Origin: a virus
DNA length: 48,889 nucleotides
Direction: 5' to 3' (one strand)
IMG/VR virus record: IMGVR_UViG_3300032086_000885
Location: 1-48,889 of that record
Positions 1 through 48,889 of this stretch are shown here, piece after piece. The notes under the pieces are model-generated. The model made no database searches. It was not told where the DNA came from and was given only the letters and a program-made list of their open reading frames with translations. Position 1 is the first letter of the stretch; every line of letters starts with the position of its first letter. A program made the translations under genes and the position numbers.

Positions 1-2
1 GG

Positions 3-338
3 GCTTCCGTCATTACTGAGAAAGGTGAACGAGTAGTTGACCGTCAGGGTGACGTAATCGAACCAGACACGTTAGTTAAAGCCGTGAATGATTTCATGGA
101 AAATGTACGTGTTGGTAAAACAATGCACACAGGCGAACAGACAGGGATGGTTATTCATTCCCTACCAATCACAAAAGAGATTGGAGATAGCCTTGGCATC
201 CAGAGTGACCGTGAAGGATGGGTTGTAGCTTACAAAGTCTACGATGATAACGTCTGGAAGATGGTTAAATCTGGGGAACTTGCGGCCTTCAGCATTGGTG
301 GTCGTGCGATTAAGGAGAAATTAGATGAACCTTCTTAA
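3..338 (+). CDS. Prohead protease, XkdF-like (C-terminal part, cut by contig start)
   Basis: Reading from base 3 without a start gives the last 111 residues of the protein that is complete at 43318-44589. It contains the VDRQGDVI segment, the TMHTGEQTG segment with the candidate catalytic His, and the AAFSIGG segment with the candidate nucleophile Ser of HK97/XkdF-type capsid maturation proteases. The first GTG at 84 is an internal Val codon. The stop lies 14 bp inside the next gene. A few residues differ from the right copy, for example DDN against DEE near the C-terminus. Confidence 0.85.
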   Translation, partial: ASVITEKGERVVDRQGDVIEPDTLVKAVNDFMENVRVGKTMHTGEQTGMVIHSLPITKEIGDSLGIQSDREGWVVAYKVYDDNVWKMVKSGELAAFSIGGRAIKEKLDEPS

Positions 339-1164: not shown

Positions 1165-1166
1165 TC

Positions 1167-1556
1167 ATGGCTGTACAAGAATCTCGTGAGACACGTACAT
1201 TCATTGCAGGAGAGGACCTGTCTTCTTCTCAATTTAAATTTGTAACTCTTGAAGCTGACGGTCAAATAGATCTAGCTGATGCAGACGCAGAGCGTTGCAT
1301 TGGTGTTCTTATCAATGACCCTGCCTCAGGCTCAGAAGCAACTGTTGTTATTTCTGGTAAAACAATGGTTACCGCAGGTGGCACTATTACCGCAGGTGAT
1401 GAAGTTTGCACAGATACATCAGGTGATGCAGTAGAGCTTTCTACATCATCATCAGCAACAGCAATCACAATGGGTTATGCCCTAGAAGACGCTGCAGATG
1501 GTCAAGTATTCGGTATCGAATTGATCCAAGGCGGCAATTCTTCTGATCAATCATAA
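1167..1556 (+). CDS. Head decoration protein-like (DUF2190-type, allele A)
   Basis: A 129-residue protein with no predicted membrane segment. Alternating Gly/Thr/Val strands such as ASGSEATVVISGKTMVTAGG suggest a small beta-barrel. It sits between scaffold and major capsid protein, where many siphoviruses encode the decoration or DUF2190 protein that stabilises capsid pentamers and hexamers. The start is 2 bp after the scaffold stop. The right-end allele has 123 residues and differs mainly in residues 30-45 and 75-100. The family call comes from context and composition; no catalytic motif is expected. Confidence 0.65.
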   Translation: MAVQESRETRTFIAGEDLSSSQFKFVTLEADGQIDLADADAERCIGVLINDPASGSEATVVISGKTMVTAGGTITAGDEVCTDTSGDAVELSTSSSATAITMGYALEDAADGQVFGIELIQGGNSSDQS

Positions 1557-1582
1557 TCCATAGATAAGAAGGAATAACAACA

Positions 1583-2593
1583 ATGCCTATGTTAACCGCA
1601 TCACAGGTACATATAGATCAGCCCTTAACAAATCTGACTATTGCGTACCTACAAGACCAGAATAACTTTATCGCTGATAAGGTTTTCCCAAACGTAGCTG
1701 TAGACAAGAAAACTAACAAGTACTACATCTATGACCGTGAGAACTTCTTCCGTAATGAAGTAACTGCTCGTGCGCCTCGTACACGTTCACAAAGAATTGG
1801 TATGAGCCTCTCAACAGCTACTTACACTGCTGAAGTTCGTTCATTGTCAACAGACTTTGACTTCGAAACACTAGCTAACGCTGACACAGCTTTGGACATC
1901 CGAAGAGGTGCATCAGAAATGCTAACACACAATCTCTTGATTGATCGTGAAAGCCGTTGGATGTCAACATTCTTTGGTACAAGTATCTGGACTACAGAAT
2001 ATGACGGTGTTGCAAATGCAGATAACGATACTGCAACAGAAGTCACACAGTGGGATGACTATACAAACTCAACTCCAATCGTTGACGTAACTGCTGCTCG
2101 AAGAGCAATGCAAAAAGCATCTGGTGGCTTCAAGCCAAACAAAATGGTTGTAACTCGTGACGTTCACGATACACTAGTCAACCACCCAGACGTACTTGCA
2201 CGTATCAACGGTGGCGCAACTGTAACCAACACTGCTTTGGTGACACAAGCTAAACTAGCAGAAATCTTTGAGGTTGCTGAGTACTACATCGTAGACGCAA
2301 TCGAAAACTCTTCTGCAGAAGGTGTAGCAGAGTCACTAGACTTTGTAGCAACTAAGAAAGCTGCATTGTACTACGCTCCTGCATCTGCAGGGTTGATGGT
2401 TCCATCAGCAGGTTACAACTTCACATGGAATGAGTTAGATAATGCATCTGGCTATGGTATCGACATTCGTTCATACTCTGGCGATTTCCTACGTGTAGAA
2501 GGTGTTGCAGAACTCCTAGAAGCAAACATGGCTTACGACCAAAAGGTTGTAGGTGCTGACCTAGGTGTATTCTTCAACACAATCTTGTCATAA
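1583..2593 (+). CDS. Major capsid protein
   Basis: A 336-residue protein in the canonical position after protease, scaffold and decoration genes, with an AAGGAAT ribosome site. It resembles the major capsid (gpE/HK97-fold) group of marine siphophages. Features are an N-terminal arm ending in FIADKVFPNVAVDKK, a conserved RAPRTRSQR segment, and a beta-rich C-terminal half. The protein is nearly identical in the two contig ends (Ile against Val near residue 19), although the first 215 bp differ at many silent sites. Fold assignment is inferred. Confidence 0.85.
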   Translation: MPMLTASQVHIDQPLTNLTIAYLQDQNNFIADKVFPNVAVDKKTNKYYIYDRENFFRNEVTARAPRTRSQRIGMSLSTATYTAEVRSLSTDFDFETLANADTALDIRRGASEMLTHNLLIDRESRWMSTFFGTSIWTTEYDGVANADNDTATEVTQWDDYTNSTPIVDVTAARRAMQKASGGFKPNKMVVTRDVHDTLVNHPDVLARINGGATVTNTALVTQAKLAEIFEVAEYYIVDAIENSSAEGVAESLDFVATKKAALYYAPASAGLMVPSAGYNFTWNELDNASGYGIDIRSYSGDFLRVEGVAELLEANMAYDQKVVGADLGVFFNTILS

Positions 2594-2604
2594 GGAGTAG
2601 GTGA

Positions 2605-3003
2605 ATGACCCGACCACCATTTCAATATGATAAGCCACTCTTCGTTAGAAATCCACAGGGATTGCTGATGAATGGTAAGCGTTATGCAAAAGGTGATCTC
2701 GTTCCTTGGAAGGAGCGAGGTCTACCTAAAGCAAACATTGAGCGTTTGTATAATGAGCACCATCTACATCATAACGAAGAGTTGGAAGAAGTAGCTAAAC
2801 CTTCCGTAGGAGACGGCTTAGATGAAATGACTGGAGAACAGTTAAACATCTTAGTCAAGACTATAAACGAAAAGGTTAAAGCTAAGACTTCAAGTAACTC
2901 AGAGTATGACCGCAAGAGATGTCGAATCTCTAAGGTAAAAGATAAACAAGCAGGTTTGATTCGCTCCTGGCGAAGGAACTACGGACACTTAGAGGCTGAA
3001 TAA
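2605..3003 (+). CDS. Unknown protein between capsid and connector genes
   Basis: A 132-residue basic protein, translated from an AAGGAG site a few bases before ATG; its stop overlaps the next start (TAATG). The N-terminal half is compact, with RNPQGLLMNGKRYAKGDLVPW. The C-terminal 45 residues are Lys/Arg-rich with a Cys-Arg-Ile-Ser segment. It is not recognised. Its position just after the major capsid gene suggests a head-completion or capsid-associated role, for example binding packaged DNA, but this is inference from place and charge only. Confidence 0.7.
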   Translation: MTRPPFQYDKPLFVRNPQGLLMNGKRYAKGDLVPWKERGLPKANIERLYNEHHLHHNEELEEVAKPSVGDGLDEMTGEQLNILVKTINEKVKAKTSSNSEYDRKRCRISKVKDKQAGLIRSWRRNYGHLEAE

Positions 3004-3467
3004 TGGCTTGGACATATGACGAAACTAATCTAGTTACTACTACGGCTGCAGGTCGATTAAATGTGGTAAGACTTCTAATAGGTGACACTGACACTAACGA
3101 TCAGCTCATTAAGAACGAAGAGATTACTTTTGCCTTGTCCCAAGCTAATGATAACGTCTACTTTGCTGCTTCTTGGTCAGCCAGAACTATATCTGCACAG
3201 TTTGCCAGAAGAGTTACAACAAAACTAGATGGGGCTTTATCGGCAGAGTATAGCGACTTAGCTAAACAGTATAAAGCCCTGTCTGATGACCTTCGTGAGC
3301 AAGGTCAAAAGTATTCAATGACATCCTCAAGTTTAAAAGCAGGTGGTATTTCTAAGGCTGCAATAGATGCAGCTCAGGCTCTTACTGATCGACCCTCTGC
3401 TGCTTTCTCTAAAGGACAGTTTGACAACCCACCTAATGATAGTCAGTACATTCGGGATTATGACTAA
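3003..3467 (+). CDS. Head-tail adaptor protein (gp6-like)
   Basis: A 154-residue, largely helical protein. The N-terminus ends in VRLLIGDTDTNDQLIKNEEI, then come helices with EEITFALSQANDNVYFAASWSA. This 'LLIGDTD...DEEI' start is typical of HK97 gp6/SPP1 gp15-like adaptor rings that bind the portal. It starts in a TAATG overlap and ends in another, so it is co-translated with the neck genes. The assignment rests on the N-terminal pattern and gene order. Confidence 0.65.
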   Translation: MAWTYDETNLVTTTAAGRLNVVRLLIGDTDTNDQLIKNEEITFALSQANDNVYFAASWSARTISAQFARRVTTKLDGALSAEYSDLAKQYKALSDDLREQGQKYSMTSSSLKAGGISKAAIDAAQALTDRPSAAFSKGQFDNPPNDSQYIRDYD

Positions 3468-3820
3468 TGGGCTTCAGAGCATACGACCTCTTAAAGCTCG
3501 TAGAAGAGCATGGAGAGACTCTTACACTACGTAAGAAAGCTTATGGTGACTACGACCCTGCTACTAGTGCAGTAGGAAGTACCACTACCACCGATTACGC
3601 TATGACTGCATACTTCTATAACTATGAACTAGGTGTATCTGACTTAAATAACGTAGAGAGTGGTATGAGAAAATGTCTTATTTCCGCTCTAGGGTTAGCC
3701 GTAAGTCCTGATACAGAAGATTTAATCGTAGGTAATGGTGATCCAGTAAATATCATTAACGTGCTTACAATGTATTCTGCAGGTCAAGCTATTTGTTATA
3801 TCTGTGACGTGAGGGAATAA
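3467..3820 (+). CDS. Head-closure / stopper-like neck protein
   Basis: A 117-residue, beta-rich protein between the adaptor gene and the gp10-like neck gene, both joined by 1-bp TAATG overlaps. The segment GETLTLRKKAYGDYDPATSAVGSTTTTDY, followed by 'EDLIVGNGDPVNIINV' toward the C-terminus, resembles SPP1 gp16-type stopper proteins that close the portal after packaging. Sequence conservation in this family is weak, so the call relies partly on synteny. Confidence 0.55.
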   Translation: MGFRAYDLLKLVEEHGETLTLRKKAYGDYDPATSAVGSTTTTDYAMTAYFYNYELGVSDLNNVESGMRKCLISALGLAVSPDTEDLIVGNGDPVNIINVLTMYSAGQAICYICDVRE

Positions 3821-4200
3821 TGCAGGTTACAGTAAAAAAAGCTCGTATCGCAAAGAAAAGCAAAAGACTTGAGCAAGCTGCAAGAAATCGTATATACAAA
3901 GCGCTAGATCAAAGTATAGATTTCTTAAGTTTAAGTGTACCTGTAGATACAGGAGCTTATGCTAATTCTATGCACCTCAACACAAGAGGGAATAGATCAG
4001 GGAGCGGAGAAACCTCTCGCAGAAAAGAAAGAGGAGTTGCCGCTGACTTAGTTCTTAATGAGATGGAAACTAGACTTAGATCTAGCTTAGAAACCATAGA
4101 TCCCTTAGATGGGGCTACTATAGTAAATAATGCACCTCATGCAAAATATGTTGAACTTAGACACGGCATATTTGATCAGTTAAGGAATGTGTTAACATAA
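3820..4200 (+). CDS. Tail-completion / neck protein, HK97 gp10-like
   Basis: A 126-residue protein with the family signature VPVDTGAYANSMHL (residues 46-59) and a later NNAPHAKYVE segment, both hallmarks of HK97 gp10-like neck proteins that connect the tail to the closed head. The N-terminus is strongly basic with a helix ending at DQSIDFLSL. It overlaps both neighbours by one base. The call is well supported by the two motifs and the position before the tail terminator. Confidence 0.8.
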   Translation: MQVTVKKARIAKKSKRLEQAARNRIYKALDQSIDFLSLSVPVDTGAYANSMHLNTRGNRSGSGETSRRKERGVAADLVLNEMETRLRSSLETIDPLDGATIVNNAPHAKYVELRHGIFDQLRNVLT

Positions 4201-4616
4201 TGGCTTCTATCTATCATCACATACGTCGAGCATTAGAAACAAAACTTGACACTGAAAATATAGCTGATGTTGCCTACGAAAATGTAGCTTTCAGCCCTAC
4301 AACTGGTACTAGCTTTTTACGACCAGTTTTTACCCCGACAATTCGTAGACCTTCCGTAATGGGTACAGGCCCTCAGCAAAGATATCAAGGACTATTTAGG
4401 GTTCTTTGTCATGCTGCCGAAGGTACTGGACCAAACACTGCTGATGACTTAGCAAACACTGTAATAGAAGCTTTTGAAGCAACTACAGACATTAGTTATA
4501 ACACAGGTTCAGAAACTTTACTGGTATCTATAGATTATGCAGAACGCTCTGTAGGTTTGTTAGATACCCCTTGGTACATCGTTCCAGTTAATATTGGCTG
4601 GTACATATTTAAATAG
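4200..4616 (+). CDS. Tail terminator protein (DUF4128-like)
   Basis: A 138-residue protein starting MASIYHHIRRALETKL and ending with strands, as in the DUF4128 / lambda gpU-type terminators that cap the tail tube. FRVLCHAAEGTGPNTADDLANTVIEAF lies in the middle. It follows the neck gene in a TAATG overlap and precedes the tube gene by 10 bp with an AGGAG ribosome site. The family call rests on the N-terminal helix, the mid-protein helix and gene order. Confidence 0.7.
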   Translation: MASIYHHIRRALETKLDTENIADVAYENVAFSPTTGTSFLRPVFTPTIRRPSVMGTGPQQRYQGLFRVLCHAAEGTGPNTADDLANTVIEAFEATTDISYNTGSETLLVSIDYAERSVGLLDTPWYIVPVNIGWYIFK

Positions 4617-4626
4617 GAGAATATAA

Positions 4627-5601
4627 ATGGCCTTCGCACAGGGTTCACGTTCCACACTATCTTTCTTAGCAGAGAGTACTTTCGGTACAACACCTGCAGG
4701 AAACTTCCAAAACTTACCTTTCACCACACATTCTTTGAACTTATCTAAGGATCGTGTTGCAGGTACAGATATTCAATCAGATCGTCAGCCACGAGTTGAC
4801 CGTCACGGTAACAGAGTTGTAGGTGGAGACATCGTAGCTGACCTTCGTCATGCTGAGTTCGATACACTTATGCAAGCTGCTATGATGGCAGACAATGACT
4901 TTGCCACAGGGTTCTCTGCAGGTGATGGTACAACTGTCGCTAACGCAGCTATCGCAGGTACAACACCACAGTTCTTTTCAATGGAAGACTATGCTGCAGA
5001 CATTGATCAAGCTCGTTTGTTCAGTGGCTGTACTGTTAACACAATGTCAGTCTCTATGGCTCCCAACCAGATGGTTTCAACAACCTTTGGTATTGTGGGT
5101 AAAGATATGTCAGTATCTCAAACACAAAAGACACAAACTGCTTCAGCAGGTAACTCACCTTTCGATGCTTACTCAGGTGACATCAAGTTAGGTAACGTAG
5201 GTGCTTTAGGTTCAGCCTTGACCTTGATTACTGCTGTTGACTTTACTATCACTAACAACTTTGCTCCAACATTGGTTATCGGTGAAAGTACAGCGTCTGC
5301 ACTAGAGTTTGGTATGATTAACATCGAAGGTACAGTATCTGCATACTTCGAAGATGCCACACTACTTAACCGCTTCTTGAACGAGACAGAGTCTTCACTT
5401 GAGGTATCAGTTGGTGACGGTACAAACACACTAACATTCTTATTCCCACGTATCAAAGTTAACTCTGCTGATGTGGGTGTAGACGGACCAACTTCACGTA
5501 TCGTGAATATGTCTTTTGTTGCTCTTCGTGACACTTCAGACTTAACGTCCTCTGCAACAGACAATAATACAATCTTGAAAATACTCAAATCAGGTGCGTA
5601 A
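4627..5601 (+). CDS. Major tail (tube) protein
   Basis: A 324-residue protein with an AGGAG ribosome site. It starts MAFAQGSRSTLSFLAESTFG and has SKDRVAGTDIQSDRQ, VVGGDIVADLR and later IEGTVSAYF, a pattern seen in lambda gpV/phage_tail_3-type tube subunits. Most of the chain is predicted beta. It stands between the tail terminator and the frameshifted chaperone pair, the standard place. A leader with strong RNA structure separates it from the chaperone gene. The contig's right end cuts its second copy after 29 codons. Confidence 0.8.
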   Translation: MAFAQGSRSTLSFLAESTFGTTPAGNFQNLPFTTHSLNLSKDRVAGTDIQSDRQPRVDRHGNRVVGGDIVADLRHAEFDTLMQAAMMADNDFATGFSAGDGTTVANAAIAGTTPQFFSMEDYAADIDQARLFSGCTVNTMSVSMAPNQMVSTTFGIVGKDMSVSQTQKTQTASAGNSPFDAYSGDIKLGNVGALGSALTLITAVDFTITNNFAPTLVIGESTASALEFGMINIEGTVSAYFEDATLLNRFLNETESSLEVSVGDGTNTLTFLFPRIKVNSADVGVDGPTSRIVNMSFVALRDTSDLTSSATDNNTILKILKSGA

Positions 5602-29058: not shown

Positions 29059-29655
29059 CTAACCCCACTGCTCTGCCATAGCATTAGCTATGCCTTGATA
29101 AGTTTTGCTACGCAACTTCCAACGATCTTTCGAAGGTGGTAGCCAGTGCAACTTCTGACGCTCTGCGGAAGATAGCTTACTCATCTGATCTTTTACATCA
29201 TCAGTGGGCTGCAGCTTAGGTAGACCCCTGAGCCATAGACAAGTGGCTTTCTGCTCCATGTGTCCAAACATCCAAGGTTGTATAACCTGACTTTGATTAC
29301 GGTTTCCTATACGCTCTTTAGCATACTTATGCATTATAGGATTTTCTACACAGAGTTTCTCAATAGGTAAGTCTAAGAACATATTGAAGAACTGAGCAGC
29401 CTCATCTAACTTAGACCACCGTGATGGTTGTTTATGCAGCCAAGATACTCCGCTGTTTGCCAAGTAGGTACAGGGTGGATGAGCTATAACCATATCCCAA
29501 TCTTCGAATAAGATGTCACGTATATCGCCTTTGTAATGAGGACCGTAACCTTCTCCGTCTAAAAGATCACAGGATACTGCTTCATGCCCCTTGTTTAAAA
29601 AGGCATCCCTTACAGTACCTGAGAACTCACAAGCTACTAGTATTTTCAATTTCAT
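29059..29655 (-). CDS. DNA cytosine methyltransferase-like protein
   Basis: 198 residues. LKILVACEFSGTVRDAF is the SAM-binding start, IAHPPCTYLANSG contains the PPC catalytic motif, and CVENPIMHKY the ENP motif of C5-methyltransferases. It lacks room for a normal target-recognition domain (typical enzymes exceed 300 residues). Short proteins of this kind are frequent in phages; they may modify or bind phage DNA or be inactive relatives. It overlaps the preceding gene by 29 bp. Confidence 0.75.
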   Translation of the reverse strand: MKLKILVACEFSGTVRDAFLNKGHEAVSCDLLDGEGYGPHYKGDIRDILFEDWDMVIAHPPCTYLANSGVSWLHKQPSRWSKLDEAAQFFNMFLDLPIEKLCVENPIMHKYAKERIGNRNQSQVIQPWMFGHMEQKATCLWLRGLPKLQPTDDVKDQMSKLSSAERQKLHWLPPSKDRWKLRSKTYQGIANAMAEQWG

Positions 29656-29914
29656 CTCCTATGTCTTGCCAAACCTTCATAAAACGGTTTGCTACAGGTC
29701 TCTTAACATCCCCACATTTATTTATCAAGTCCCTATTTATAAAACCATACATTTTATATAAAACTTTTAATGTGTCGATAACGTCCTGACGACTGTTTGC
29801 AGTAGCTACCGCAGGGGTATTGGGCAAAGGCGGTCGTTCACCTTTACATATCTGACCTATTTCCCACGTAAGCATAAACTCACCGAGAAGCTTTTCATCA
29901 TCTACAGGTTTCAA
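29627..29914 (-). CDS. Unknown protein between primase-helicase and methyltransferase-like gene
   Basis: 95 residues: MKPVDDEKLLGEFMLTWEIG, a Pro-rich linker (GERPPLPNTPAVATA), then a helical part with KVLYKMYGFINRDLINKCGD. It overlaps the helicase stop as ATGA and the next start by 29 bp. The helical C-terminus could be a small winged-helix or adaptor domain, but nothing diagnostic is visible. Confidence 0.65.
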   Translation of the reverse strand: MKPVDDEKLLGEFMLTWEIGQICKGERPPLPNTPAVATANSRQDVIDTLKVLYKMYGFINRDLINKCGDVKRPVANRFMKVWQDIGDEIENTSSL

Positions 29915-31473
29915 GAGTGTGTCTCCTGCAAAGTAAAACTCATAGAGTCAAACAATAGAGTACCTGCGTTACCCTCTTCGGAGCAAGGTCTATTCTTCTC
30001 AACTCTGAGCTGTGTAGTGTTACGCTCCTGATCATCCTCAGCTAACTTATCTCTATATAGATCTATGATAACAGAAGCACGTTGACCTATCATCTTACAA
30101 TACTTAGGATCACCGTTCTCATTAGTGTGTGCAATAGTAACTATACCTACGTTAAGCTCTGCAGCTAGCTTCGATAGTCTTACGGACAAGTCAGCAAGCT
30201 GTTGCTCTTTGCTCTCTTCGGATTGACCTACGACAACATCTTGGATTGGCTCGAAGAATATGTACTTACACTCACAACCCTGACTTAAATACCGTATCTG
30301 CTCTATGAAGTCGTCTGTGTCGCTACCGTCAGGCATATAGAATTGATAGAACAGCTCGTCTTTGGTTATCTCCTTGATAGATTGCTCTACTACATCATGC
30401 AGACCGAGTGAATCTATGATATCCCTACGTGTGAGGTTCTGGTTTTGGTGATAGGACACAAGACCTAGGACACTGCGTAACTTTGTTTCTTCTAGGTGCC
30501 AAGATGCGAAAGGAACTTTCCTCTGTAGCATATTGTACTCTAAGTAACGCATTACCTCAGTCTTACCTATGCCAGTCGGTGCTTTAATCACAGTAAAGTG
30601 ACCTTGCATAAGTCCCATAATCTTATCATCAAGCGCCTCTATACCTGTAGGTACATAGTTGTAGTCAGGTGACTCTCTAAATAGATCTACAAACTGATCT
30701 GACGTATTTAGAATATTCTCAGGTGTATACTTTCTAGCGTTCCACCATGCGTTAGTGAACTCACGATTAGCGTTGTTAGTTAGAAAGTCGTTTGCGTCCT
30801 TATAAACGTCGTGTTTAACCCTATAGGTCTTATTCGGAAACATATTGAAGATCTTAGATGCAACTGCATTACCTGCAGCATCATTATCTACACTTAAAAC
30901 TATCTTCTCAAATGTATCTAGCCAGTCTTTACATCTTTCCCATAGCCTTTTAGAGGGCGTAGCAGAGGGTAAAGACACTACAGGCTGTATAGACCTGCCC
31001 TGCATCATCTCTTGTACTGACAACGCATCTATCTCACCTTCAGTTATCGTTACGATCTTAGCGCAACCTGCAGGGAACAAGTTCATACCAAAAAGCTCAT
31101 CTTGTGATAGACCCTGAGCAGAAAAAGTTTTAGGCATAACTCTGATCTTTTTACCACCTGACGGGTACATATACTCTTGCTTAATTACGTTGCCACCATC
31201 ATCGGTATAGCTACGTACATCGTACATTTCCATAACCTTTACCGAGATACCCCTTGAGGGCAAGTACTTATAGTCAACTACAACTTCTTCTGGTGCATCA
31301 AATGCCATTTCTTTATCACTCCTACGTTTATGCTTTAAGGGCTCGTGCTGATCGAAGAAATACTGATCGCATGAGAAACACTTGCCTACTTCTTTTTCTG
31401 TATTGAAGGAGTAGGCATCGCTACTCCCACAGTTGATCTTATCTGGACATGGTAAGTGTGTTAGTTCACTCAT
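29911..31473 (-). CDS. DNA primase-helicase (T7 gp4-like)
   Basis: 520 residues. A zinc ribbon with Cys9, Cys15, Cys32 and Cys35; a Toprim core with TEGEIDALS (Glu145) and SVDNDAAG (Asp196/Asp198); and a DnaB-type helicase with Walker A KAPTGIGKTEV (297-307) and a later FEPIQDVVVG. This is the full T7 gp4 layout, giving primer synthesis and 5'-3' unwinding on one chain. The first Cys pair is spaced wider than in T7. Its start overlaps a 28-residue membrane peptide gene. Confidence 0.92.
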   Translation of the reverse strand: MSELTHLPCPDKINCGSSDAYSFNTEKEVGKCFSCDQYFFDQHEPLKHKRRSDKEMAFDAPEEVVVDYKYLPSRGISVKVMEMYDVRSYTDDGGNVIKQEYMYPSGGKKIRVMPKTFSAQGLSQDELFGMNLFPAGCAKIVTITEGEIDALSVQEMMQGRSIQPVVSLPSATPSKRLWERCKDWLDTFEKIVLSVDNDAAGNAVASKIFNMFPNKTYRVKHDVYKDANDFLTNNANREFTNAWWNARKYTPENILNTSDQFVDLFRESPDYNYVPTGIEALDDKIMGLMQGHFTVIKAPTGIGKTEVMRYLEYNMLQRKVPFASWHLEETKLRSVLGLVSYHQNQNLTRRDIIDSLGLHDVVEQSIKEITKDELFYQFYMPDGSDTDDFIEQIRYLSQGCECKYIFFEPIQDVVVGQSEESKEQQLADLSVRLSKLAAELNVGIVTIAHTNENGDPKYCKMIGQRASVIIDLYRDKLAEDDQERNTTQLRVEKNRPCSEEGNAGTLLFDSMSFTLQETHS

Positions 31474-31726: not shown

Positions 31727-31776
31727 GTAATTCTCCTTCCTCGCGCATTTTACCAATTTCCACCGTAGGGTGCAAG

Positions 31777-31793
31777 TGTGACAAGTTGGCACA
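31777..31793. promoter_or_regulatory. 17-bp near-perfect dyad (operator candidate)
   Basis: TGTGACAAGTTGGCACA has arms TGTGACAA and TTGGCACA that match as inverted repeats except at one base. It lies 50 bp upstream of the first gene of the minus-strand replication operon, where a repressor or activator site would be expected. Confidence 0.45.
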
Positions 31794-31816
31794 GTAAACA
31801 AACAATCATGTAGATA

Positions 31817-31845
31817 TTGACTACAAAAAACCTAGAAAGTAAAAT
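31817..31845 (+). promoter_or_regulatory. Plus-strand sigma70-like promoter with no downstream gene
   Basis: TTGACT (31817-31822), 17 bp, TAAAAT (31840-31845). Predicted start is near 31852, inside the 17-bp TTAAGTG motif. It faces the iterons and the 12-bp array, and antisense to the minus-strand module. It may make a non-coding RNA or a replication primer. Confidence 0.6.
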
Positions 31846-31848
31846 ATT

Positions 31849-31865
31849 CTTAAGTGATTCTTAAG
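31849..31865. promoter_or_regulatory. 17-bp TTAAGTG motif, copy 1
   Basis: CTTAAGTGATTCTTAAG; two CTTAAG palindromes separated by TGATT. Copies 2 and 3 are at 36396 and 36449. It starts 32 bp after the -35 hexamer of the promoter at 31817. Operator candidate. Confidence 0.55.
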
Positions 31866-31918
31866 AAATATACTTCTACAGACTATTTAGAGTTAGTAAA
31901 GACTATAGCAACACTTAA

Positions 31919-32001
31919 GTCTATTTCCACTGGAGGTCATTTTCCATCGGAGGTCTCTGGTCATTTTCCACTGGAGCCCCTCTAGTCAATTTCCATCGGA
32001 G
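31919..32001 (+). repeat. Four 17-bp iterons, consensus GTCWWTTTCCAYYGGAG
   Basis: Units at 31919-31935, 31936-31952, 31960-31976 and 31985-32001. The two inner bases alternate CT, TC, CT, TC from unit to unit. All lie in the same direction. A related family of four 18-bp units is at 35291-35500. Iteron groups like this often bind initiators or repressors. Confidence 0.85.
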
Positions 32002-32007
32002 GTCTCC

Positions 32008-32103
32008 CTGGCCAGGCGCCAGGCTAAGATCCCGGCCAGGACCCGGGTCTAGCTCCCGGGTTAGACCCGGGCTAGACTCCTGGCCAGGAGCTAAGATTCG
32101 AGC
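32008..32103. repeat. GC-rich array of eight 12-bp words
   Basis: Cut every 12 bp from 32008 the segment gives eight words, for example CTGGCCAGGCGC, CCGGCCAGGACC, CGGGCTAGACTC and CTGGCCAGGAGC. Position 12 is C in all eight; positions 3-4 are GG in seven. Many words hold CCGG, GGCC or CTAG cores, and 32077-32090 is a 14-bp palindrome. The word family recurs at 35309-35620. Confidence 0.75.
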
Positions 32104-32105
32104 AA

Positions 32106-32138
32106 AGAAAAACCCTAAGCTAAATCAATAGCTTAGGG
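32106..32138 (-). terminator. Terminator of the 35.0-32.1 kb minus-strand operon
   Basis: On the minus strand GCTTAGGG type arms pair: + strand CCCTAAGC (32113-32120) with GCTTAGGG (32131-32138), loop 10 nt, followed on the minus strand by TTTTTCTTTG (32112 downward). It lies just after the last gene of this block (stop at 32146). Confidence 0.85.
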
Positions 32139-32145
32139 CTTAGAG

Positions 32146-32510: not shown

Positions 32511-33482
32511 TTATCTAAGCCACCTATTGAGCCAGTGACTAGTATCAGATACCGCGCCATACTCATATAGCTCATCCATAAGGTCTCGAGGACTGCTGAA
32601 GTATTCCGCTAGCATCTTAGCGACCGCCTTAGGGTGTTCCCTAACCATTTCCTCAAAAGGCTCATGATCAGAAACCCCGTAGGCGTCGTCATAGTCGTAT
32701 TGTGACCACTTGCCGCCATAGCTTGTTGCATAGCCAGTCCCGTATGCATACTCGATAACCGAGGGATCACGCTCAAAGACTAGCTTAGACCAATCTGCGG
32801 CTATCAGGGCATCTCTTAGATCCGCTGCAAACTGCAAATCCTGTTGCTCGTTGGGCGTATGCTGATAGAGATAACCGACTGAAATATTCGTACACTCTGA
32901 GATATCATTTGCGTACTCGTTACTGTCGGTATAGCTACCCCCATCGTCAGGACGCATACCTAAACCTAGTATACTATCCAGACTAACTGCAAAGGCATCG
33001 CTACAGGTTCTGATACTCATTTGATGCGTAACGATAGACTCTTTATCTTTCCTATCGAAACTAATTACAGCTTTGAGGTTATGCATCCACTTAGGATTAC
33101 TTGCGACCATTGCGCTAGAACCTACGCAACCGCTTTCTTCCTCGGCATGGACTACATAAACGCCCTCGATTCCTGCATCAATCATCTCTAGGATTAGCCA
33201 GATACCAGTAGCACAGTCAGCGCCTAAGCAGTTAGACTTAGAGCCTTTTGCTAACCTTACTATCTGATTACTGATTTGCACGTTTTGCATACCGTCGTCT
33301 TTATGGACTGTATCGTAATGCGCTGCAAAGCAGATTTCTGGATTATCCCCTATGATCAACTCATAGTTCCCGTGCTTATCTGGCAACCCGAACGTTGGGT
33401 GTAAGAACCGCTCCGAGAAATCTTTTATGCTATCAGTACGCGGCTTGCGCTTATACTTTAGCATGCTAGTTAAACTATGCAC
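32511..33482 (-). CDS. M20-type metallopeptidase / deacylase
   Basis: 323 residues. CFAAHYDTVH has His55 and Asp57; NCLGADCATG has the bridging Asp89; VVHAEEESGCVGS has Glu114-116 for the catalytic base and metal; Asp143 (SFDRKD) and His208 (YQHTPNEQQD) complete the set. These are the ligands of M20/M28 di-zinc aminopeptidases and deacylases. GADC replaces the usual GADD/GADN, but the ligand Asp is kept. The C-terminal 90 residues, rich in Tyr and acids, are extra. Such enzymes are rare in phages; substrate unknown. Start overlaps the upstream stop by 8 bp. Confidence 0.8.
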   Translation of the reverse strand: MHSLTSMLKYKRKPRTDSIKDFSERFLHPTFGLPDKHGNYELIIGDNPEICFAAHYDTVHKDDGMQNVQISNQIVRLAKGSKSNCLGADCATGIWLILEMIDAGIEGVYVVHAEEESGCVGSSAMVASNPKWMHNLKAVISFDRKDKESIVTHQMSIRTCSDAFAVSLDSILGLGMRPDDGGSYTDSNEYANDISECTNISVGYLYQHTPNEQQDLQFAADLRDALIAADWSKLVFERDPSVIEYAYGTGYATSYGGKWSQYDYDDAYGVSDHEPFEEMVREHPKAVAKMLAEYFSSPRDLMDELYEYGAVSDTSHWLNRWLR

Positions 33483-35061: not shown

Positions 35062-35090
35062 ACCGTACCATTTTAAATGCTCTGGGTCAA
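35062..35090 (-). promoter_or_regulatory. Promoter candidate for the minus-strand peptidase operon
   Basis: On the minus strand TTGACC (35090-35085), 17 bp, TACGGT (35067-35062) with TGG directly before it, an extended -10. Predicted start near 35055 gives a leader of about 78 nt. The -10 itself is weak. Confidence 0.5.
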
Positions 35091-35164: not shown

Positions 35165-35290
35165 CAATAGGTTACGGTGCTATTTATTCTCTAGTTTGTG
35201 ATCACATATTTCTACCTAGGGGTATTTCTTGGGGCTTTATGCTGCAGCCAGGCCGGGCGCCTAGCGAGTAAAAAAGGTTAGACCTTAGCC

Positions 35291-35500
35291 TATTTCCTAT
35301 CCGGGGTCCAGGCCAGGAGCTTAACCCGGGTCCAGGCCAGGAGCCAGGCCGGGGTCTAACCCGGGAGCCAGGCCAGGAGCCAGGAGACAGCCTCCCCTCA
35401 TTTCCTATCTAGGGTCTAACCCGGGAGCCTGGCCAGGAGCCAGGCGATAGCCTCCCCCTATTTCCTATCGGGGGTCTTAGTTAATTTCCTATCGGGGGTC
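35291..35500 (+). repeat. Four 18-bp iterons, consensus NATTTCCTATCNRGGGTC
   Basis: Units at 35291-35308, 35399-35416, 35459-35476 and 35483-35500, all in the same direction. They match the left-side iterons apart from one inserted T (AATTTCC-ATCGGAGGTC against AATTTCCTATCGGGGGTC). They are interleaved with 12-bp words. Confidence 0.85.
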
Positions 35501-35620
35501 CTGGCTAGAGCCTAAGCCAGGAGCCAGGCCAGGAGCTATGCCGGGAGCGCATACCAGCTCTGGTCTAAGCGCATAGCTAGGATCTTGGCCTAGAGCCTAG
35601 CCTAGAGCTATGCATAGAGC
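35309..35620. repeat. GC-rich arrays of 12-bp words (right side)
   Basis: Seven words fill 35309-35392 in exact phase (CAGGCCAGGAGC four times, CAGGCCGGGGTC, TTAACCCGGGTC, TAACCCGGGAGC and a degenerate one make up the set). Three follow at 35417-35452. Ten fill 35501-35620 in phase (for example TATGCCGGGAGC, TTGGCCTAGAGC, CTAGCCTAGAGC, TATGCATAGAGC), each ending in C. An isolated CAGGCCGGGCGC is at 35249. G+C is far above that of the surroundings. Confidence 0.8.
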
Positions 35621-36364: not shown

Positions 36365-36412
36365 TTGACATACTATATGCACATTAAGATCCTATCTTAA
36401 GTGTTTCTTAGG
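36365..36412 (+). promoter_or_regulatory. -35-like TTGACA followed by TTAAGTG motif copy 2
   Basis: TTGACA is at 36365-36370 and CTTAAGTGTTTCTTAGG at 36396-36412. The 31-bp offset equals within one base that at 31817/31849. The -10 (GATCCT at 17 bp) is poor, so an activator may be needed if this is a promoter. Confidence 0.45.
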
Positions 36413-36448
36413 TTCCTTACTAACTTCTAGCTATAAGAAGTAATTAGA

Positions 36449-36465
36449 CCTAAGTGACTCTTAAG
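36449..36465. promoter_or_regulatory. 17-bp TTAAGTG motif, copy 3
   Basis: CCTAAGTGACTCTTAAG matches the consensus CYTAAGTGNNTCTTARG. A 6-bp hairpin (ACTTCT/AGAAGT, 36423-36441) lies just upstream. Confidence 0.5.
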
Positions 36466-36511
36466 TACGATCTGGACTTGCTCCCCAGAGGTTTGTAGTA
36501 GAAAGAAGTAG

Positions 36512-43318: not shown

Positions 43319-44589
43319 TGTCAAATTCAGATAAATGGGCTTCTACTAAGAAGCGACAAATGGACAACGATATTTTTACTAGCCCTGCGGAAGCTCGTAG
43401 TAGATCTTTTATGTTAGGTTTTGACGGTGACATTCATACTCATGAAGTTGGTGCTAATGTTTATTACATGCCTGCAAAAACGCATGAAGAATATCTCAAC
43501 TATCACAAAGATCTTGCAGGTATTAAAGAGATTCCGCAAGAAGAGCAGAAAGAAGAATCAGACTTATTAGCTCGTATCCTTTCTGCGGTTATTGAACAGG
43601 TAACTAAAGTAGAGACTAGTACCTTAGCTTCTAAGGTAAAAGAACATAATGCTAAACATGGTAGCAAGGGTAAGGTAACTACCTCTATGCTACGTCAGGT
43701 TTATAACAGAGGTGTAGGCGCATATAAGACAAATCCTGGATCGGTTCGTCCTAACGTCTCATCTCCCGAACAGTGGGCAATGGCTCGTGTCAACAATTTC
43801 CTACGTACCATCCGTACAGGTCGCTTCCGTAGTGGTAAGCATGATACTGATCTCCTACCTTCTAAACATCCTCTTAGTACAAGGAAGTCACAAGTATGGG
43901 ATGGAGGCGATCTACCAACACAGGACCAGATTGATAAAGCAGATAAGCCCCTAAATAAACCCTTCAGACTTCCTGCAGGATCAAGCAAGAAGTTTGGAGT
44001 TTACGTAAAGGACGGAGACAAAACCAAGAAAGTTACTTTTGGTGATCCTAATATGGAAATCCGTCGAGATGACCCAAAGGCTAGAGCTAATTTCCGCAGC
44101 AGACATTCTTGCGATACCGCATCAGATAAGACCTCTGCTCGTTATTGGTCTTGCCGTATGTGGGAGAAGGGTAGATCAGTGAGTGATTTAACAAAGGATA
44201 TCGAAGGCCAAATCCTAAAGACTGACGATGAACAGCGTATAGTCTACGGATGGGCTTCCGTCATTACTGAGAAAGGTGAACGAGTAGTTGACCGTCAGGG
44301 TGACGTAATCGAACCAGACACGTTAGTTAAAGCCGTGAATGACTTCATGGAAAATGTACGTGTTGGTAAAACAATGCACACAGGCGAACAGACAGGAATG
44401 GTTATTCATTCCCTACCAATCACCAAAGAGATTGGGGACAGCCTTGGCATTCAGAGTGACCGAGAAGGATGGGTCGTAGCTTATAAAGTCTATGATGAAG
44501 AAGTCTGGAAGATGGTCAAATCTGGTGAACTTGCGGCCTTCAGCATTGGCGGTCGTGCGATTAAGGAGAAGATAGATGAACCTTCTTAA
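43318..44589 (+). CDS. Prohead protease, XkdF-like, with DUF5824-like N-terminal extension
   Basis: 423 residues. Residues about 105-190 contain RGVGAYKTNPGSVRPNVSS and EQWAMARVNNFL, the DUF5824 pattern. Residues 245-282 have RSRHSCDTASDKTSARYWSC with paired Cys and Trp. The protease domain is 300-423: RIVYGWASV, VDRQGDVIEP, TMHTGEQTG (His354), AAFSIGG (Ser409). The final strand of the fold is missing and appears at the start of the overlapping next gene. It matures the capsid after assembly. Only this copy is complete. Confidence 0.85.
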   Translation: MSNSDKWASTKKRQMDNDIFTSPAEARSRSFMLGFDGDIHTHEVGANVYYMPAKTHEEYLNYHKDLAGIKEIPQEEQKEESDLLARILSAVIEQVTKVETSTLASKVKEHNAKHGSKGKVTTSMLRQVYNRGVGAYKTNPGSVRPNVSSPEQWAMARVNNFLRTIRTGRFRSGKHDTDLLPSKHPLSTRKSQVWDGGDLPTQDQIDKADKPLNKPFRLPAGSSKKFGVYVKDGDKTKKVTFGDPNMEIRRDDPKARANFRSRHSCDTASDKTSARYWSCRMWEKGRSVSDLTKDIEGQILKTDDEQRIVYGWASVITEKGERVVDRQGDVIEPDTLVKAVNDFMENVRVGKTMHTGEQTGMVIHSLPITKEIGDSLGIQSDREGWVVAYKVYDEEVWKMVKSGELAAFSIGGRAIKEKIDEPS

Positions 44590-45358
44590 GCAATTAGAGC
44601 TTGACGAATTATCTTTGGTGGATCGCCCTGCTAATGCATCTGCCAAGGTTGCTCTGTACAAGCGTGACAATTCCGAAGAGGATAACATGACAGAAACAGT
44701 CGAAAAGATGTCTGATGACATGAAAGCAAAGCTCAAGCCATACATGGATAAAGGTATGTCTGAGCAAGAGGCTATGAAAGCCTATAACATGGACATGAAA
44801 AAGTCCGATGAAGAAGAAGTAGATCTGAGCCTAGAGGTTGAAGTCGAAGCACTAAAAGCTGACAACGAAAAACTTCGTAAGGCTCTTATTGAAAATGGCT
44901 TTGTAATTAAAGCTGATGAAATAGCAAAGAAAGAAGAAGTAGAGACAATCGAAGTAAGTGGAGAGATGGTTGTTAAATCAGATATCCCTGCTCCTGTCTT
45001 GAAAGCTCTTGAAGAAGCTGCAGTAGAAAAGCGTCAGTCTGAGCTACGTAAATCTGCTGAAGCTGAATTGCCTCACTTTGACGTTGAAGTTGCTATGCAA
45101 CTACTTGACGTTGTTAAGGGTGACGAAAAAGTCCTAGAAGCACTTAAAGGAGCTGATGCTGCTTTTGCTGCTGCTATGGATGAGGTTGGTGAGAAATCAG
45201 TTGATGCTGATATGCTAGACCCACAAACTAAATTGGATAAGATGGTAGAGGCTCATGCTGCAGAGCATGGTGTCAACAAATACACTGCTTTTGATGCCAT
45301 CTCTAAAACAGCAGAGGGTAAAGCCCTTATTGCTAAAACTTATGAAAAGGATGAGTAA
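44576..45358 (+). CDS. Capsid scaffold-like protein (allele B)
   Basis: 260 residues, with the same 14-bp overlap with the protease and the same AAGGAG site as allele A. The N-terminal SLVDRPANASAKVAL segment and the C-terminal 140 residues are conserved. Residues about 32-105 differ in length and sequence: allele A has AYKMTEEQEKNLDNLPPAVRAK, this one has TVEKMSDDMKAKLKPYMDKG. The change lies in the acidic coiled-coil part, which can tolerate length variation. Confidence 0.75.
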   Translation: MNLLKQLELDELSLVDRPANASAKVALYKRDNSEEDNMTETVEKMSDDMKAKLKPYMDKGMSEQEAMKAYNMDMKKSDEEEVDLSLEVEVEALKADNEKLRKALIENGFVIKADEIAKKEEVETIEVSGEMVVKSDIPAPVLKALEEAAVEKRQSELRKSAEAELPHFDVEVAMQLLDVVKGDEKVLEALKGADAAFAAAMDEVGEKSVDADMLDPQTKLDKMVEAHAAEHGVNKYTAFDAISKTAEGKALIAKTYEKDE

Positions 45359-45360
45359 TT

Positions 45361-45732
45361 ATGGCTGTACAAGAATCTCGTGATACACGTACATTCATTG
45401 CAGGAGAGGACCTATCTTCTTCTCAATTTAAATTCGTAACATTGGAATCAGATGGTCAAGTTGACCTAGCTGACTCCGCAGGTGAAAACTGCATGGGTGT
45501 AGTTATAAATGACCCTGCATCTGGTAGTGAAGCAACTGTTGTTGTAGGTGGTAAAACTGTAGTTACTGCAGGTGGAACCATTGCAGCAGGAGCATCTGTA
45601 GCTACTGACGCCTCTGGGGACGCTGTAACTGCTTCCACAGGAAATATTGTAATGGGTTACGCTTTGGAGGCAGGGGTTGACGGTCAAGTTATCGCAATCG
45701 AATTAATCCAAGGTGGTAACGCTGCTGCGTAA
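45361..45732 (+). CDS. Head decoration protein-like (allele B)
   Basis: 123 residues against 129 in allele A. Differences are concentrated in two surface-like segments (DLADSAGENCMGVVI, and the shorter DASGDAVTASTGNIV), while the framework strands and the N-terminus (MAVQESRDTRTFIAGEDLSSSQFKF) are kept. Variation at exposed loops of a capsid surface protein is plausible; the role is inferred as for the left copy. Confidence 0.65.
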   Translation: MAVQESRDTRTFIAGEDLSSSQFKFVTLESDGQVDLADSAGENCMGVVINDPASGSEATVVVGGKTVVTAGGTIAAGASVATDASGDAVTASTGNIVMGYALEAGVDGQVIAIELIQGGNAAA

Positions 45733-45758
45733 CCTGTAGATAAGAAGGAATAACAACA

Positions 45759-46769
45759 ATGCCTATGTTAACCGCATCTCAGGTACATATAGATCAGCCG
45801 CTTACAAACTTAACGGTAGCGTACCTACAAGACCAAAATAACTTTATCGCTGATAAGGTTTTCCCAAACGTAGCTGTAGACAAGAAGACTAACAAGTACT
45901 ACATCTACGACCGCGAGAACTTCTTTCGCAATGAAGTAACTGCTCGTGCGCCTCGTACACGTTCACAAAGAATCGGTATGAGCCTCTCAACAGCTACTTA
46001 CACTGCTGAAGTTCGTTCATTGTCAACAGACTTTGACTTCGAAACACTAGCTAACGCTGACACAGCTTTGGACATCCGAAGAGGTGCATCAGAAATGCTA
46101 ACACACAATCTCTTGATTGATCGTGAAAGCCGTTGGATGTCAACATTCTTTGGTACAAGTATCTGGACTACAGAATATGACGGTGTTGCAAATGCAGATA
46201 ACGATACTGCAACAGAAGTCACACAGTGGGATGACTATACAAACTCAACTCCAATCGTTGACGTAACTGCTGCTCGAAGAGCAATGCAAAAAGCATCTGG
46301 TGGCTTCAAGCCAAACAAAATGGTTGTAACTCGTGACGTTCACGATACACTAGTCAACCACCCAGACGTACTTGCACGTATCAACGGTGGCGCAACTGTA
46401 ACCAACACTGCTTTGGTGACACAAGCTAAACTAGCAGAAATCTTTGAGGTTGCTGAGTACTACATCGTAGACGCAATCGAAAACTCTTCTGCAGAAGGTG
46501 TAGCAGAGTCACTAGACTTTGTAGCAACTAAGAAAGCTGCATTGTACTACGCTCCTGCATCTGCAGGGTTGATGGTTCCATCAGCAGGTTACAACTTCAC
46601 ATGGAATGAGTTAGATAATGCATCTGGCTATGGTATCGACATTCGTTCATACTCTGGCGATTTCCTACGTGTAGAAGGTGTTGCAGAACTCCTAGAAGCA
46701 AACATGGCTTACGACCAAAAGGTTGTAGGTGCTGACCTAGGTGTATTCTTCAACACAATCTTGTCATAA
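45759..46769 (+). CDS. Major capsid protein (right copy)
   Basis: 336 residues, the same as the left copy except Val for Ile near residue 19. Silent differences stop at the base equivalent to 1798; the rest of the gene was identical where compared. See the entry at 1583. Confidence 0.85.
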   Translation: MPMLTASQVHIDQPLTNLTVAYLQDQNNFIADKVFPNVAVDKKTNKYYIYDRENFFRNEVTARAPRTRSQRIGMSLSTATYTAEVRSLSTDFDFETLANADTALDIRRGASEMLTHNLLIDRESRWMSTFFGTSIWTTEYDGVANADNDTATEVTQWDDYTNSTPIVDVTAARRAMQKASGGFKPNKMVVTRDVHDTLVNHPDVLARINGGATVTNTALVTQAKLAEIFEVAEYYIVDAIENSSAEGVAESLDFVATKKAALYYAPASAGLMVPSAGYNFTWNELDNASGYGIDIRSYSGDFLRVEGVAELLEANMAYDQKVVGADLGVFFNTILS

Positions 46770-46780
46770 GGAGTAGGTGA

Positions 46781-47179
46781 ATGACCCGACCACCATTTCA
46801 ATATGATAAGCCACTCTTCGTTAGAAATCCACAGGGATTGCTGATGAATGGTAAGCGTTATGCAAAAGGTGATCTCGTTCCTTGGAAGGAGCGAGGTCTA
46901 CCTAAAGCAAACATTGAGCGTTTGTATAATGAGCACCATCTACATCATAACGAAGAGTTGGAAGAAGTAGCTAAACCTTCCGTAGGAGACGGCTTAGATG
47001 AAATGACTGGAGAACAGTTAAACATCTTAGTCAAGACTATAAACGAAAAGGTTAAAGCTAAGACTTCAAGTAACTCAGAGTATGACCGCAAGAGATGTCG
47101 AATCTCTAAGGTAAAAGATAAACAAGCAGGTTTGATTCGCTCCTGGCGAAGGAACTACGGACACTTAGAGGCTGAATAA
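46781..47179 (+). CDS. Unknown protein after capsid gene (right copy)
   Basis: Identical protein to that at 2605-3003; 132 residues with a basic C-terminus. Confidence 0.7.
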   Translation: MTRPPFQYDKPLFVRNPQGLLMNGKRYAKGDLVPWKERGLPKANIERLYNEHHLHHNEELEEVAKPSVGDGLDEMTGEQLNILVKTINEKVKAKTSSNSEYDRKRCRISKVKDKQAGLIRSWRRNYGHLEAE

Positions 47180-47643
47180 TGGCTTGGACATATGACGAAA
47201 CTAATCTAGTTACTACTACGGCTGCAGGTCGATTAAATGTGGTAAGACTTCTAATAGGTGACACTGACACTAACGATCAGCTCATTAAGAACGAAGAGAT
47301 TACTTTTGCCTTGTCCCAAGCTAATGATAACGTCTACTTTGCTGCTTCTTGGTCAGCCAGAACTATATCTGCACAGTTTGCCAGAAGAGTTACAACAAAA
47401 CTAGATGGGGCTTTATCGGCAGAGTATAGCGACTTAGCTAAACAGTATAAAGCCCTGTCTGATGACCTTCGTGAGCAAGGTCAAAAGTATTCAATGACAT
47501 CCTCAAGTTTAAAAGCAGGTGGTATTTCTAAGGCTGCAATAGATGCAGCTCAGGCTCTTACTGATCGACCCTCTGCTGCTTTCTCTAAAGGACAGTTTGA
47601 CAACCCACCTAATGATAGTCAGTACATTCGGGATTATGACTAA
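47179..47643 (+). CDS. Head-tail adaptor protein (right copy)
   Basis: Identical protein to that at 3003-3467, with the LLIGDTD N-terminal signature. Confidence 0.65.
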   Translation: MAWTYDETNLVTTTAAGRLNVVRLLIGDTDTNDQLIKNEEITFALSQANDNVYFAASWSARTISAQFARRVTTKLDGALSAEYSDLAKQYKALSDDLREQGQKYSMTSSSLKAGGISKAAIDAAQALTDRPSAAFSKGQFDNPPNDSQYIRDYD

Positions 47644-47996
47644 TGGGCTTCAGAGCATACGACCTCTTAAAGCTCGTAGAAGAGCATGGAGAGACTCTTA
47701 CACTACGTAAGAAAGCTTATGGTGACTACGACCCTGCTACTAGTGCAGTAGGAAGTACCACTACCACCGATTACGCTATGACTGCATACTTCTATAACTA
47801 TGAACTAGGTGTATCTGACTTAAATAACGTAGAGAGTGGTATGAGAAAATGTCTTATTTCCGCTCTAGGGTTAGCCGTAAGTCCTGATACAGAAGATTTA
47901 ATCGTAGGTAATGGTGATCCAGTAAATATCATTAACGTGCTTACAATGTATTCTGCAGGTCAAGCTATTTGTTATATCTGTGACGTGAGGGAATAA
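47643..47996 (+). CDS. Head-closure-like protein (right copy)
   Basis: Identical protein to that at 3467-3820. Confidence 0.55.
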   Translation: MGFRAYDLLKLVEEHGETLTLRKKAYGDYDPATSAVGSTTTTDYAMTAYFYNYELGVSDLNNVESGMRKCLISALGLAVSPDTEDLIVGNGDPVNIINVLTMYSAGQAICYICDVRE

Positions 47997-48376
47997 TGCA
48001 GGTTACAGTAAAAAAAGCTCGTATCGCAAAGAAAAGCAAAAGACTTGAGCAAGCTGCAAGAAATCGTATATACAAAGCGCTAGATCAAAGTATAGATTTC
48101 TTAAGTTTAAGTGTACCTGTAGATACAGGAGCTTATGCTAATTCTATGCACCTCAACACAAGAGGGAATAGATCAGGGAGCGGAGAAACCTCTCGCAGAA
48201 AAGAAAGAGGAGTTGCCGCTGACTTAGTTCTTAATGAGATGGAAACTAGACTTAGATCTAGCTTAGAAACCATAGATCCCTTAGATGGGGCTACTATAGT
48301 AAATAATGCACCTCATGCAAAATATGTTGAACTTAGACACGGCATATTTGATCAGTTAAGGAATGTGTTAACATAA
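47996..48376 (+). CDS. HK97 gp10-like neck protein (right copy)
   Basis: Identical protein to that at 3820-4200, with VPVDTGAYANSMHL. Confidence 0.8.
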   Translation: MQVTVKKARIAKKSKRLEQAARNRIYKALDQSIDFLSLSVPVDTGAYANSMHLNTRGNRSGSGETSRRKERGVAADLVLNEMETRLRSSLETIDPLDGATIVNNAPHAKYVELRHGIFDQLRNVLT

Positions 48377-48792
48377 TGGCTTCTATCTATCATCACATAC
48401 GTCGAGCATTAGAAACAAAACTTGACACTGAAAATATAGCTGATGTTGCCTACGAAAATGTAGCTTTCAGCCCTACAACTGGTACTAGCTTTTTACGACC
48501 AGTTTTTACCCCGACAATTCGTAGACCTTCCGTAATGGGTACAGGCCCTCAGCAAAGATATCAAGGACTATTTAGGGTTCTTTGTCATGCTGCCGAAGGT
48601 ACTGGACCAAACACTGCTGATGACTTAGCAAACACTGTAATAGAAGCTTTTGAAGCAACTACAGACATTAGTTATAACACAGGTTCAGAAACTTTACTGG
48701 TATCTATAGATTATGCAGAACGCTCTGTAGGTTTGTTAGATACCCCTTGGTACATCGTTCCAGTTAATATTGGCTGGTACATATTTAAATAG
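48376..48792 (+). CDS. Tail terminator protein (right copy)
   Basis: Identical protein to that at 4200-4616. Confidence 0.7.
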   Translation: MASIYHHIRRALETKLDTENIADVAYENVAFSPTTGTSFLRPVFTPTIRRPSVMGTGPQQRYQGLFRVLCHAAEGTGPNTADDLANTVIEAFEATTDISYNTGSETLLVSIDYAERSVGLLDTPWYIVPVNIGWYIFK

Positions 48793-48802
48793 GAGAATAT
48801 AA

Positions 48803-48889
48803 ATGGCCTTCGCACAGGGTTCACGTTCCACACTATCTTTCTTAGCAGAGAGTACTTTCGGTACAACACCTGCAGGAAACTTCCAAAAC
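48803..48889 (+). CDS. Major tail protein (right copy, cut by contig end)
   Basis: First 29 codons of the tube gene, identical to 4627-4713; the window ends inside the gene. AGGAG lies just upstream. Confidence 0.8.
   Translation, partial: MAFAQGSRSTLSFLAESTFGTTPAGNFQN

What the first reader, a model, noticed from the sequence alone, without database searches (positions are those of the whole stretch)
32008..32103. Left GC-rich array: eight words in exact 12-bp phase
All eight words end in C and seven have GG at positions 3-4, while the inner bases vary. It is not a simple tandem repeat: the phase is kept but words differ, as if built from a small vocabulary (CCGG, GGCC and CTAG cores). Read on the minus strand it gives (A)-P-G-type tetrapeptides, but without a start.
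Basis: seen in the sequence. Interest (0 to 1): 0.75.

Follow-up and report, generated by a model that had tools for sequence, protein, structure and literature searches.

The report
Phased palindrome arrays in roseophage control region
A marine phage carries two stretches of DNA built from different 12-letter words kept in strict step, each made of two tiny palindromes, next to its most easily melted DNA and its replication genes; they look like docking strips for a DNA-binding protein that starts replication or switches on the early genes.

Summary
The 12-bp phase is real: lag-12 identity is 0.54 against 0.27 in shuffles, and none of 1000 shuffles reach it. The phage is a relative of Roseobacter phage CRP-6. 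A larger sister array lies at 35246-35617. Both arrays recur at the same two places in about 26 related contigs, with words gained or lost mostly in exact multiples of 12 bp. On the minus strand the word is CYNRG-CYNRG-NN. Positions 2 and 4 of each pentamer covary (CCNGG or CTNAG, rarely mixed), and pentamers do not pair with each other. So the unit is a 5-bp palindrome in double-stranded DNA, not an RNA hairpin or a peptide. CCNGG is the most avoided gapped tetramer elsewhere in these genomes (o/e about 0.1), yet it fills the arrays. The left array is followed by a cluster of an operator-like element, the least stable DNA of the 44-kb genome, and the primase-helicase operon. Relatives without these words carry the same element cluster after other phased arrays (11, 12, 16, 19/38 or 37 bp). 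Best reading: a lineage-specific iteron array of a replication-origin/early-control region; binding protein and origin activity are not shown. A short C5-methyltransferase-like gene found in all array-bearing genomes is a rival lead.

The parts
32005..32100 (-).
32110..32141 (-). Intrinsic terminator of the upstream three-gene leftward operon; its two arms and T-run fall in the same 12-bp frame as the array, by inspection also in the L007, L021 and L033 lineages
31920..32003 (-). B-element cluster: four copies of CTCC(GA/AG)TGGAAA(A/T) 17-25 bp apart
31793..31942 (.). Least stable DNA of the genome (60-, 100- and 150-bp windows), overlapping the last B copy, with CTTAAG at 31849, 31860, 31914
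31747..31775 (-). Promoter-like TTGCAC-17-TAAAAT with a B element in the spacer, upstream of the small ORF and primase-helicase operon
   Evidence: direct reading
29911..31473 (-). DNA primase-helicase gene (phrog_239, DnaB_C, Toprim) downstream of the left array
29059..29655 (-). Short C5-methyltransferase-like gene (phrog_757), co-occurring with the arrays
35246..35617 (-). Right array: 31 words in one unbroken 12-bp frame, including words of the B type, in the divergent intergenic region
35291..35498 (-). Four B elements (starts 35498, 35474, 35414, 35306) sitting in the word frame of the right array
36367..36470 (.). Second AT-rich stretch with CTTAAG at 36396 and 36460, upstream of the terminase genes; counterpart of the CTTAAG pairs near the left array

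Best explanation
The array is a double-stranded DNA docking strip: eight (left) and 31 (right) in-phase words, each carrying two 5-bp palindromes, to which a DNA-binding protein (probably phage-encoded) binds side by side, one word per roughly one helical turn. Together with the B cluster and the adjacent easily melted DNA it forms the replication origin and early-operon control region. Proposed action: protein assembled on the words strains or melts the AT-rich stretch and/or helps load the primase-helicase encoded just downstream, while B elements act as operators in the promoter spacer. Shown: phase, grammar, palindrome covariation, conservation of place, whole-word gain and loss, B cluster, stability minimum, gene neighbourhood. 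Inferred: that a protein binds, that it is phage-encoded, and that the output is replication rather than transcription.
For: Phase and second array. Same two arrays at the same two positions in about 26 related contigs and exactly two in a full-length relative, G005. Array indels: 42 of 43 longer than 2 bp in right-array comparisons are multiples of 12. Pentamer positions 2 and 4 covary (CG 144, TA 152 against TG 31, CA 25; second pentamer 162, 116 against 43, 23) with no complementary covariation between pentamers; aligned homologous pentamers show 22 double changes against about 3.4 expected if independent (counts). Noncoding, no selected RNA fold. The left array is followed by the genome's least stable 60, 100 and 150 bp; G005's least stable 100 bp also starts about 90 bp from the end of its left-type array, and in G003 ranks 1 and 2 lie within about 0.6 kb of its arrays. 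Primase-helicase lies downstream. Relatives lacking these words have the B cluster preceded by a different phased array in several lineages, which is how initiator-iteron or operator modules are exchanged.
Against: No binding protein was identified and no replication data exist. The array also suits transcription control: it lies upstream of promoters, and B elements sit in promoter spacers. CTTAAG-bearing AT-rich DNA also occurs upstream of the terminase operon and is the least stable stretch in some relatives, so the stability minimum may be a promoter feature rather than an unwinding element. GC skew is fully confounded with gene direction. All array-bearing contigs are one clade, so co-occurrences are not independent.
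Confidence: 0.45

Rival explanations
1. Operator or enhancer array for transcription: a phage regulator coats the array upstream of each leftward operon and sets early promoter strength; replication starts elsewhere.
For: Both arrays lie upstream of operons, the left one just after a terminator; the last B element lies in a 17-18-bp promoter spacer in the window and in at least eight relatives including CRP-6 (read by eye); CTTAAG pairs spaced 11 and 64-67 bp recur in two promoter regions.
Against: The arrays are not at a fixed distance from the promoters, up to 31 words are many for an operator, and no repressor, integrase or lysogeny gene was seen in the ORF list.
Confidence: 0.3
2. Methylation strip: the short C5-methyltransferase-like protein (phrog_757) recognises or modifies the CCNGG/CTNAG pentamers, marking the region for timing or protection.
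For: Gene present in 5 of 5 array-bearing and 0 of 7 array-less related records and in every array locus that reaches that far; 5-bp palindromes are typical methyltransferase sites; CCAGG avoidance outside arrays is weaker in the array clade (o/e 0.13 against 0.04).
Against: One clade, so confounded; four unrelated phages with phrog_757 have no arrays; the protein is only 198 aa, probably without a target-recognition domain; CTNAG lacks the inner cytosine; a 12-bp phase is not needed for methylation.
Confidence: 0.12
3. Packaging (pac) or partition-type site bound by the small terminase or a centromere-type protein.
For: The right array is about 1.2 kb upstream of the probable small terminase gene; phased repeats of 11-12 bp are known from centromeres such as ParR and TubR sites (from memory).
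Against: The probable small terminase is conserved across relatives whose arrays differ, and the left array sits in front of the primase-helicase operon.
Confidence: 0.06
4. Non-functional GC-rich slippage product.
For: Whole-word gains and losses also follow from slippage between in-phase words.
Against: Words are nearly all distinct, the palindrome rule is kept by paired changes, place is conserved, and the motif is strongly avoided elsewhere.
Confidence: 0.05

Closest known systems
Iteron-type replication origins (phage lambda ori, iteron plasmids), from general knowledge
   Same: Phased repeated sites beside AT-rich, easily melted DNA and next to replication genes
   Different: Known iterons are about 17-22 bp and nearly identical; here words are 12 bp, mostly all different, and held only by a palindrome rule; no initiator known
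MetJ met-box and omega-repressor heptad arrays (ribbon-helix-helix operators), from general knowledge
   Same: Tandem short, imperfect sites in strict phase bound side by side by dimers; met boxes are palindromic
   Different: Units are 8 or 7 bp; here two 5-bp palindromes per 12 bp; far more copies; no such protein found here
TubR-tubC and ParR-parC centromeres, from general knowledge
   Same: Degenerate 11-12-bp repeats in phase
   Different: No partition genes seen; the phage shows no lysogeny or plasmid genes
Repeat/B module of Roseobacter phage CRP-6
   Same: Same B elements at the head of the early operon, preceded by a repeat array
   Different: CRP-6 uses GTTGCAAAAATGTCAC repeats about 16 bp apart and has no CYNRG words

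Membership tests
Iteron replication origin | Phased repeated sites | tested here: met
Iteron replication origin | Adjacent unwinding-prone AT-rich region | tested here: met
   Genome-wide stability minimum at 31793-31942; same in G005; partly shared with promoter regions
Iteron replication origin | Cognate initiator encoded nearby and binding the sites | not testable with these tools
   Primase-helicase downstream; no initiator family hit
Iteron replication origin | Replication starts there | not testable with these tools
   No read data; GC skew confounded with gene direction
Tandem operator array (MetJ/omega type) | Short symmetric unit repeated in phase | tested here: met
Tandem operator array (MetJ/omega type) | Ribbon-helix-helix protein encoded | tested here: inconclusive
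   No hit among the 18 scanned genes around the arrays, but several are orphans and not all genes were scanned
C5-methyltransferase target strip | Gene co-occurs with array | tested here: met
   single clade
C5-methyltransferase target strip | Gene predicts array in other phages | tested here: not met
   0 of 4 unrelated phrog_757 phages have arrays
Structured RNA | Order-specific fold or cross-pair covariation | tested here: not met
   no Rfam match
Protein-coding repeat | Open frame with start | tested here: not met

The most novel reading that the evidence does not exclude
The arrays use a recognition rule not described before, as far as I know: a strip of independent 5-bp palindromes that may be CCNGG or CTNAG but rarely mixed, two per 12 bp, made of the very sequence the rest of the genome avoids. 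It would be a coded strip read by a new type of DNA-binding or DNA-modifying phage protein, used as a fast-evolving origin or switch whose period (about one turn) is kept while the vocabulary is replaced between lineages.
Probability: 0.25. Interest if true: 0.8.

Novelty: new variant of a known kind. Interest (0 to 1): 0.6.

Why it matters
Origins and early switches of these abundant marine roseophages are, as far as the papers searched here show, undescribed. This gives a precise, testable cis-element with a grammar, a place and comparative variants. It poses a clean question: why is the most avoided pentamer of these genomes concentrated in two strips, and what reads symmetric pentamers but disfavours half-changed ones? 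The switch of vocabulary at constant place and near-constant period between lineages would be a natural experiment in co-evolution of a DNA-binding protein and its site array.

Tried and rejected
RNA element: no Rfam or tRNA hit; fold not better than word-shuffled except weakly for the left array. Peptide: no start codon, frequent stops. Host or prophage copies: the primase-helicase search found no relative in bacterial genomes. General occurrence: a scan of viral contigs for seven in-phase CYNRG pentamers gave 75 stretches; those with mostly distinct words were almost all of this phage clade, the rest simple tandem or apparently coding repeats. Restriction by a common host as the cause of CCNGG avoidance: CRP-4 is also depleted but CRP-7, isolated on the same host strain as CRP-6, is not, so unresolved. 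g95 (29627-29914) first looked like a helix-turn-helix protein, but its relatives do not keep the motif, so not claimed. GC skew as origin evidence: set aside because it follows gene direction. Literature: no paper found that describes these arrays.

Full report
Observation. Lag-12 identity is 0.54 against 0.27 in dinucleotide shuffles (0/1000 reach it), with equal signal at lags 24 and 36. No shuffle of the whole window (0/40) or of the local region (0/2000) yields an array by a word criterion.

Setting. The window is a 48.9-kb viral contig whose ends share about 4.6 kb. Its terminase is 68% identical to that of Roseobacter phage CRP-6, a phage isolated on the RCA lineage (PMC6918029). Genes run leftward from about 35.0 to 21.3 kb (early and replication genes) and rightward elsewhere. 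The finding lies between a three-gene leftward operon ending in a terminator (32141-32110) and the next operon with the primase-helicase. A larger array of the same kind lies in the divergent intergenic region at 35246-35617.

Grammar. Read on the minus strand, words are CYNRG CYNRG NN. The right array holds 31 words in one frame, and words of a second type (the B element, such as CCCGG ATAGG AA) keep the same frame. Over 403 unique 24-mers, positions 2 and 4 of each pentamer covary strongly: first pentamer CG 144, TA 152, TG 31, CA 25; second 162, 116, 43, 23. Pairs of pentamers show no complementary covariation. Adjacent pentamers in a word tend instead to be of different class (209 against 143, from the counts). 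The array-finding rule (CYNRG) does not demand this complementarity. Among 714 aligned homologous pentamers of related arrays, 22 changed on both sides and 60 on one side; independence would give about 3.4 double changes (pairs are not phylogenetically independent). The unit kept is thus a 5-bp palindrome in duplex DNA.

Conservation. About 26 related contigs (primase-helicase at least 74% identical) have the left array, and all those that reach far enough have the right one too; a full-length relative, G005, has exactly two arrays. Right-array indels are 12, 24, 36, 48, 60, 72 or 84 bp in 42 of 43 cases longer than 2 bp (every pair of contigs is counted, so some events are counted more than once). 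In the left-array region 12-bp indels are the commonest size above 3 bp, but other sizes (3-11 bp) also occur; their position inside or outside the array was not resolved. By inspection, the terminator before the left array lies in the same 12-bp frame in the window, L021, L007 and L033 lineages.

Avoidance. Outside arrays CCNGG is the most depleted ABNCD pattern: o/e 0.10 in array-bearing relatives, 0.06 in array-less low-GC relatives, 0.10 in CRP-6. In the window it is 15 observed against 68 expected, with 13 and 26 sites packed into the two array regions. Depletion is present without arrays, so it predates them or has another cause; CRP-4 shares it, CRP-7 does not.

Module. Downstream of the left array lie B elements (CTCC GATGG/AGTGG AAA), then the least stable DNA of the genome (31793-31942), then TTGCAC-17-TAAAAT with a B element in its spacer. 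B clusters of 2-6 copies occur in many array-less relatives, and in at least eight of these (CRP-6 included) the last copy lies in a TTGACC-17/18-TANNNT-like spacer (promoter reading by eye). The DNA before the cluster is another phased array in several lineages: 11 bp in L041 (z 7.8) and, more weakly, L046 and L076; 12 bp AT-rich in L037; 38 bp (two 19-bp halves) in L042, L044 and L052; 37 bp in L080 and L059; about 16 bp in CRP-6. CTTAAG pairs spaced 11 and 64-67 bp recur near the left array and upstream of the terminase operon.

Associated gene. A 198-aa C5-methyltransferase-like protein (phrog_757) is in all array-bearing records tested and in none of the array-less relatives. All array bearers are one clade, and four unrelated phages with the gene have no arrays.

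What was excluded. The arrays are not coding and not an RNA with an order-specific fold (the left array alone is slightly better than word-shuffled, z about -2). No Rfam family or tRNA matches.

Reading. The most economical account is an iteron-like protein-docking array in a replication-origin/early-control region, with its vocabulary replaced between lineages while place and approximate period persist. Replication against transcription is not settled: GC skew is confounded with gene direction and no read data were available. Shown: the sequence facts above. Inferred: the binding protein, its identity, and the output.

Noticed in passing
1-4638 and 44252-48889: The contig ends are homologous over about 4.6 kb but differ (279- against 260-aa and 129- against 123-aa proteins, later proteins identical): probably a circular or permuted genome of about 44.2 kb assembled from two strains.
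   Followed up: partly
whole window and relatives: CCWGG and GANTC are strongly avoided across the CRP-6-like phages; CCAGG occurs once in CRP-6 against 68 expected.
   Followed up: partly
L037:1-196: AT-rich array in 12-bp phase (TTATA/TTATG words) directly before B elements, in a relative without CYNRG words.
   Followed up: partly
L041:4970-5165: Degenerate 11-bp array (GTATCAAATCC words) between a promoter-like site and six B elements.
   Followed up: partly
35197-35206: Perfect palindrome TGTGATCACA between the right array and the leftward promoter, conserved in L016 and L026.
   Followed up: no
35062-35090: Promoter-like TTGACC-17-TACGGT (minus strand) before the 500-aa gene of unknown function with a cysteine-rich C-terminal part.
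   Followed up: no
L110:4880-5190: Unrelated viral contig with a 12-bp array of AGCTARGGRYTC-type words, many of them distinct; may be coding.
   Followed up: no
32511-33482: M28-type peptidase gene in the early region, conserved in the array clade and in L035/L036.
   Followed up: no
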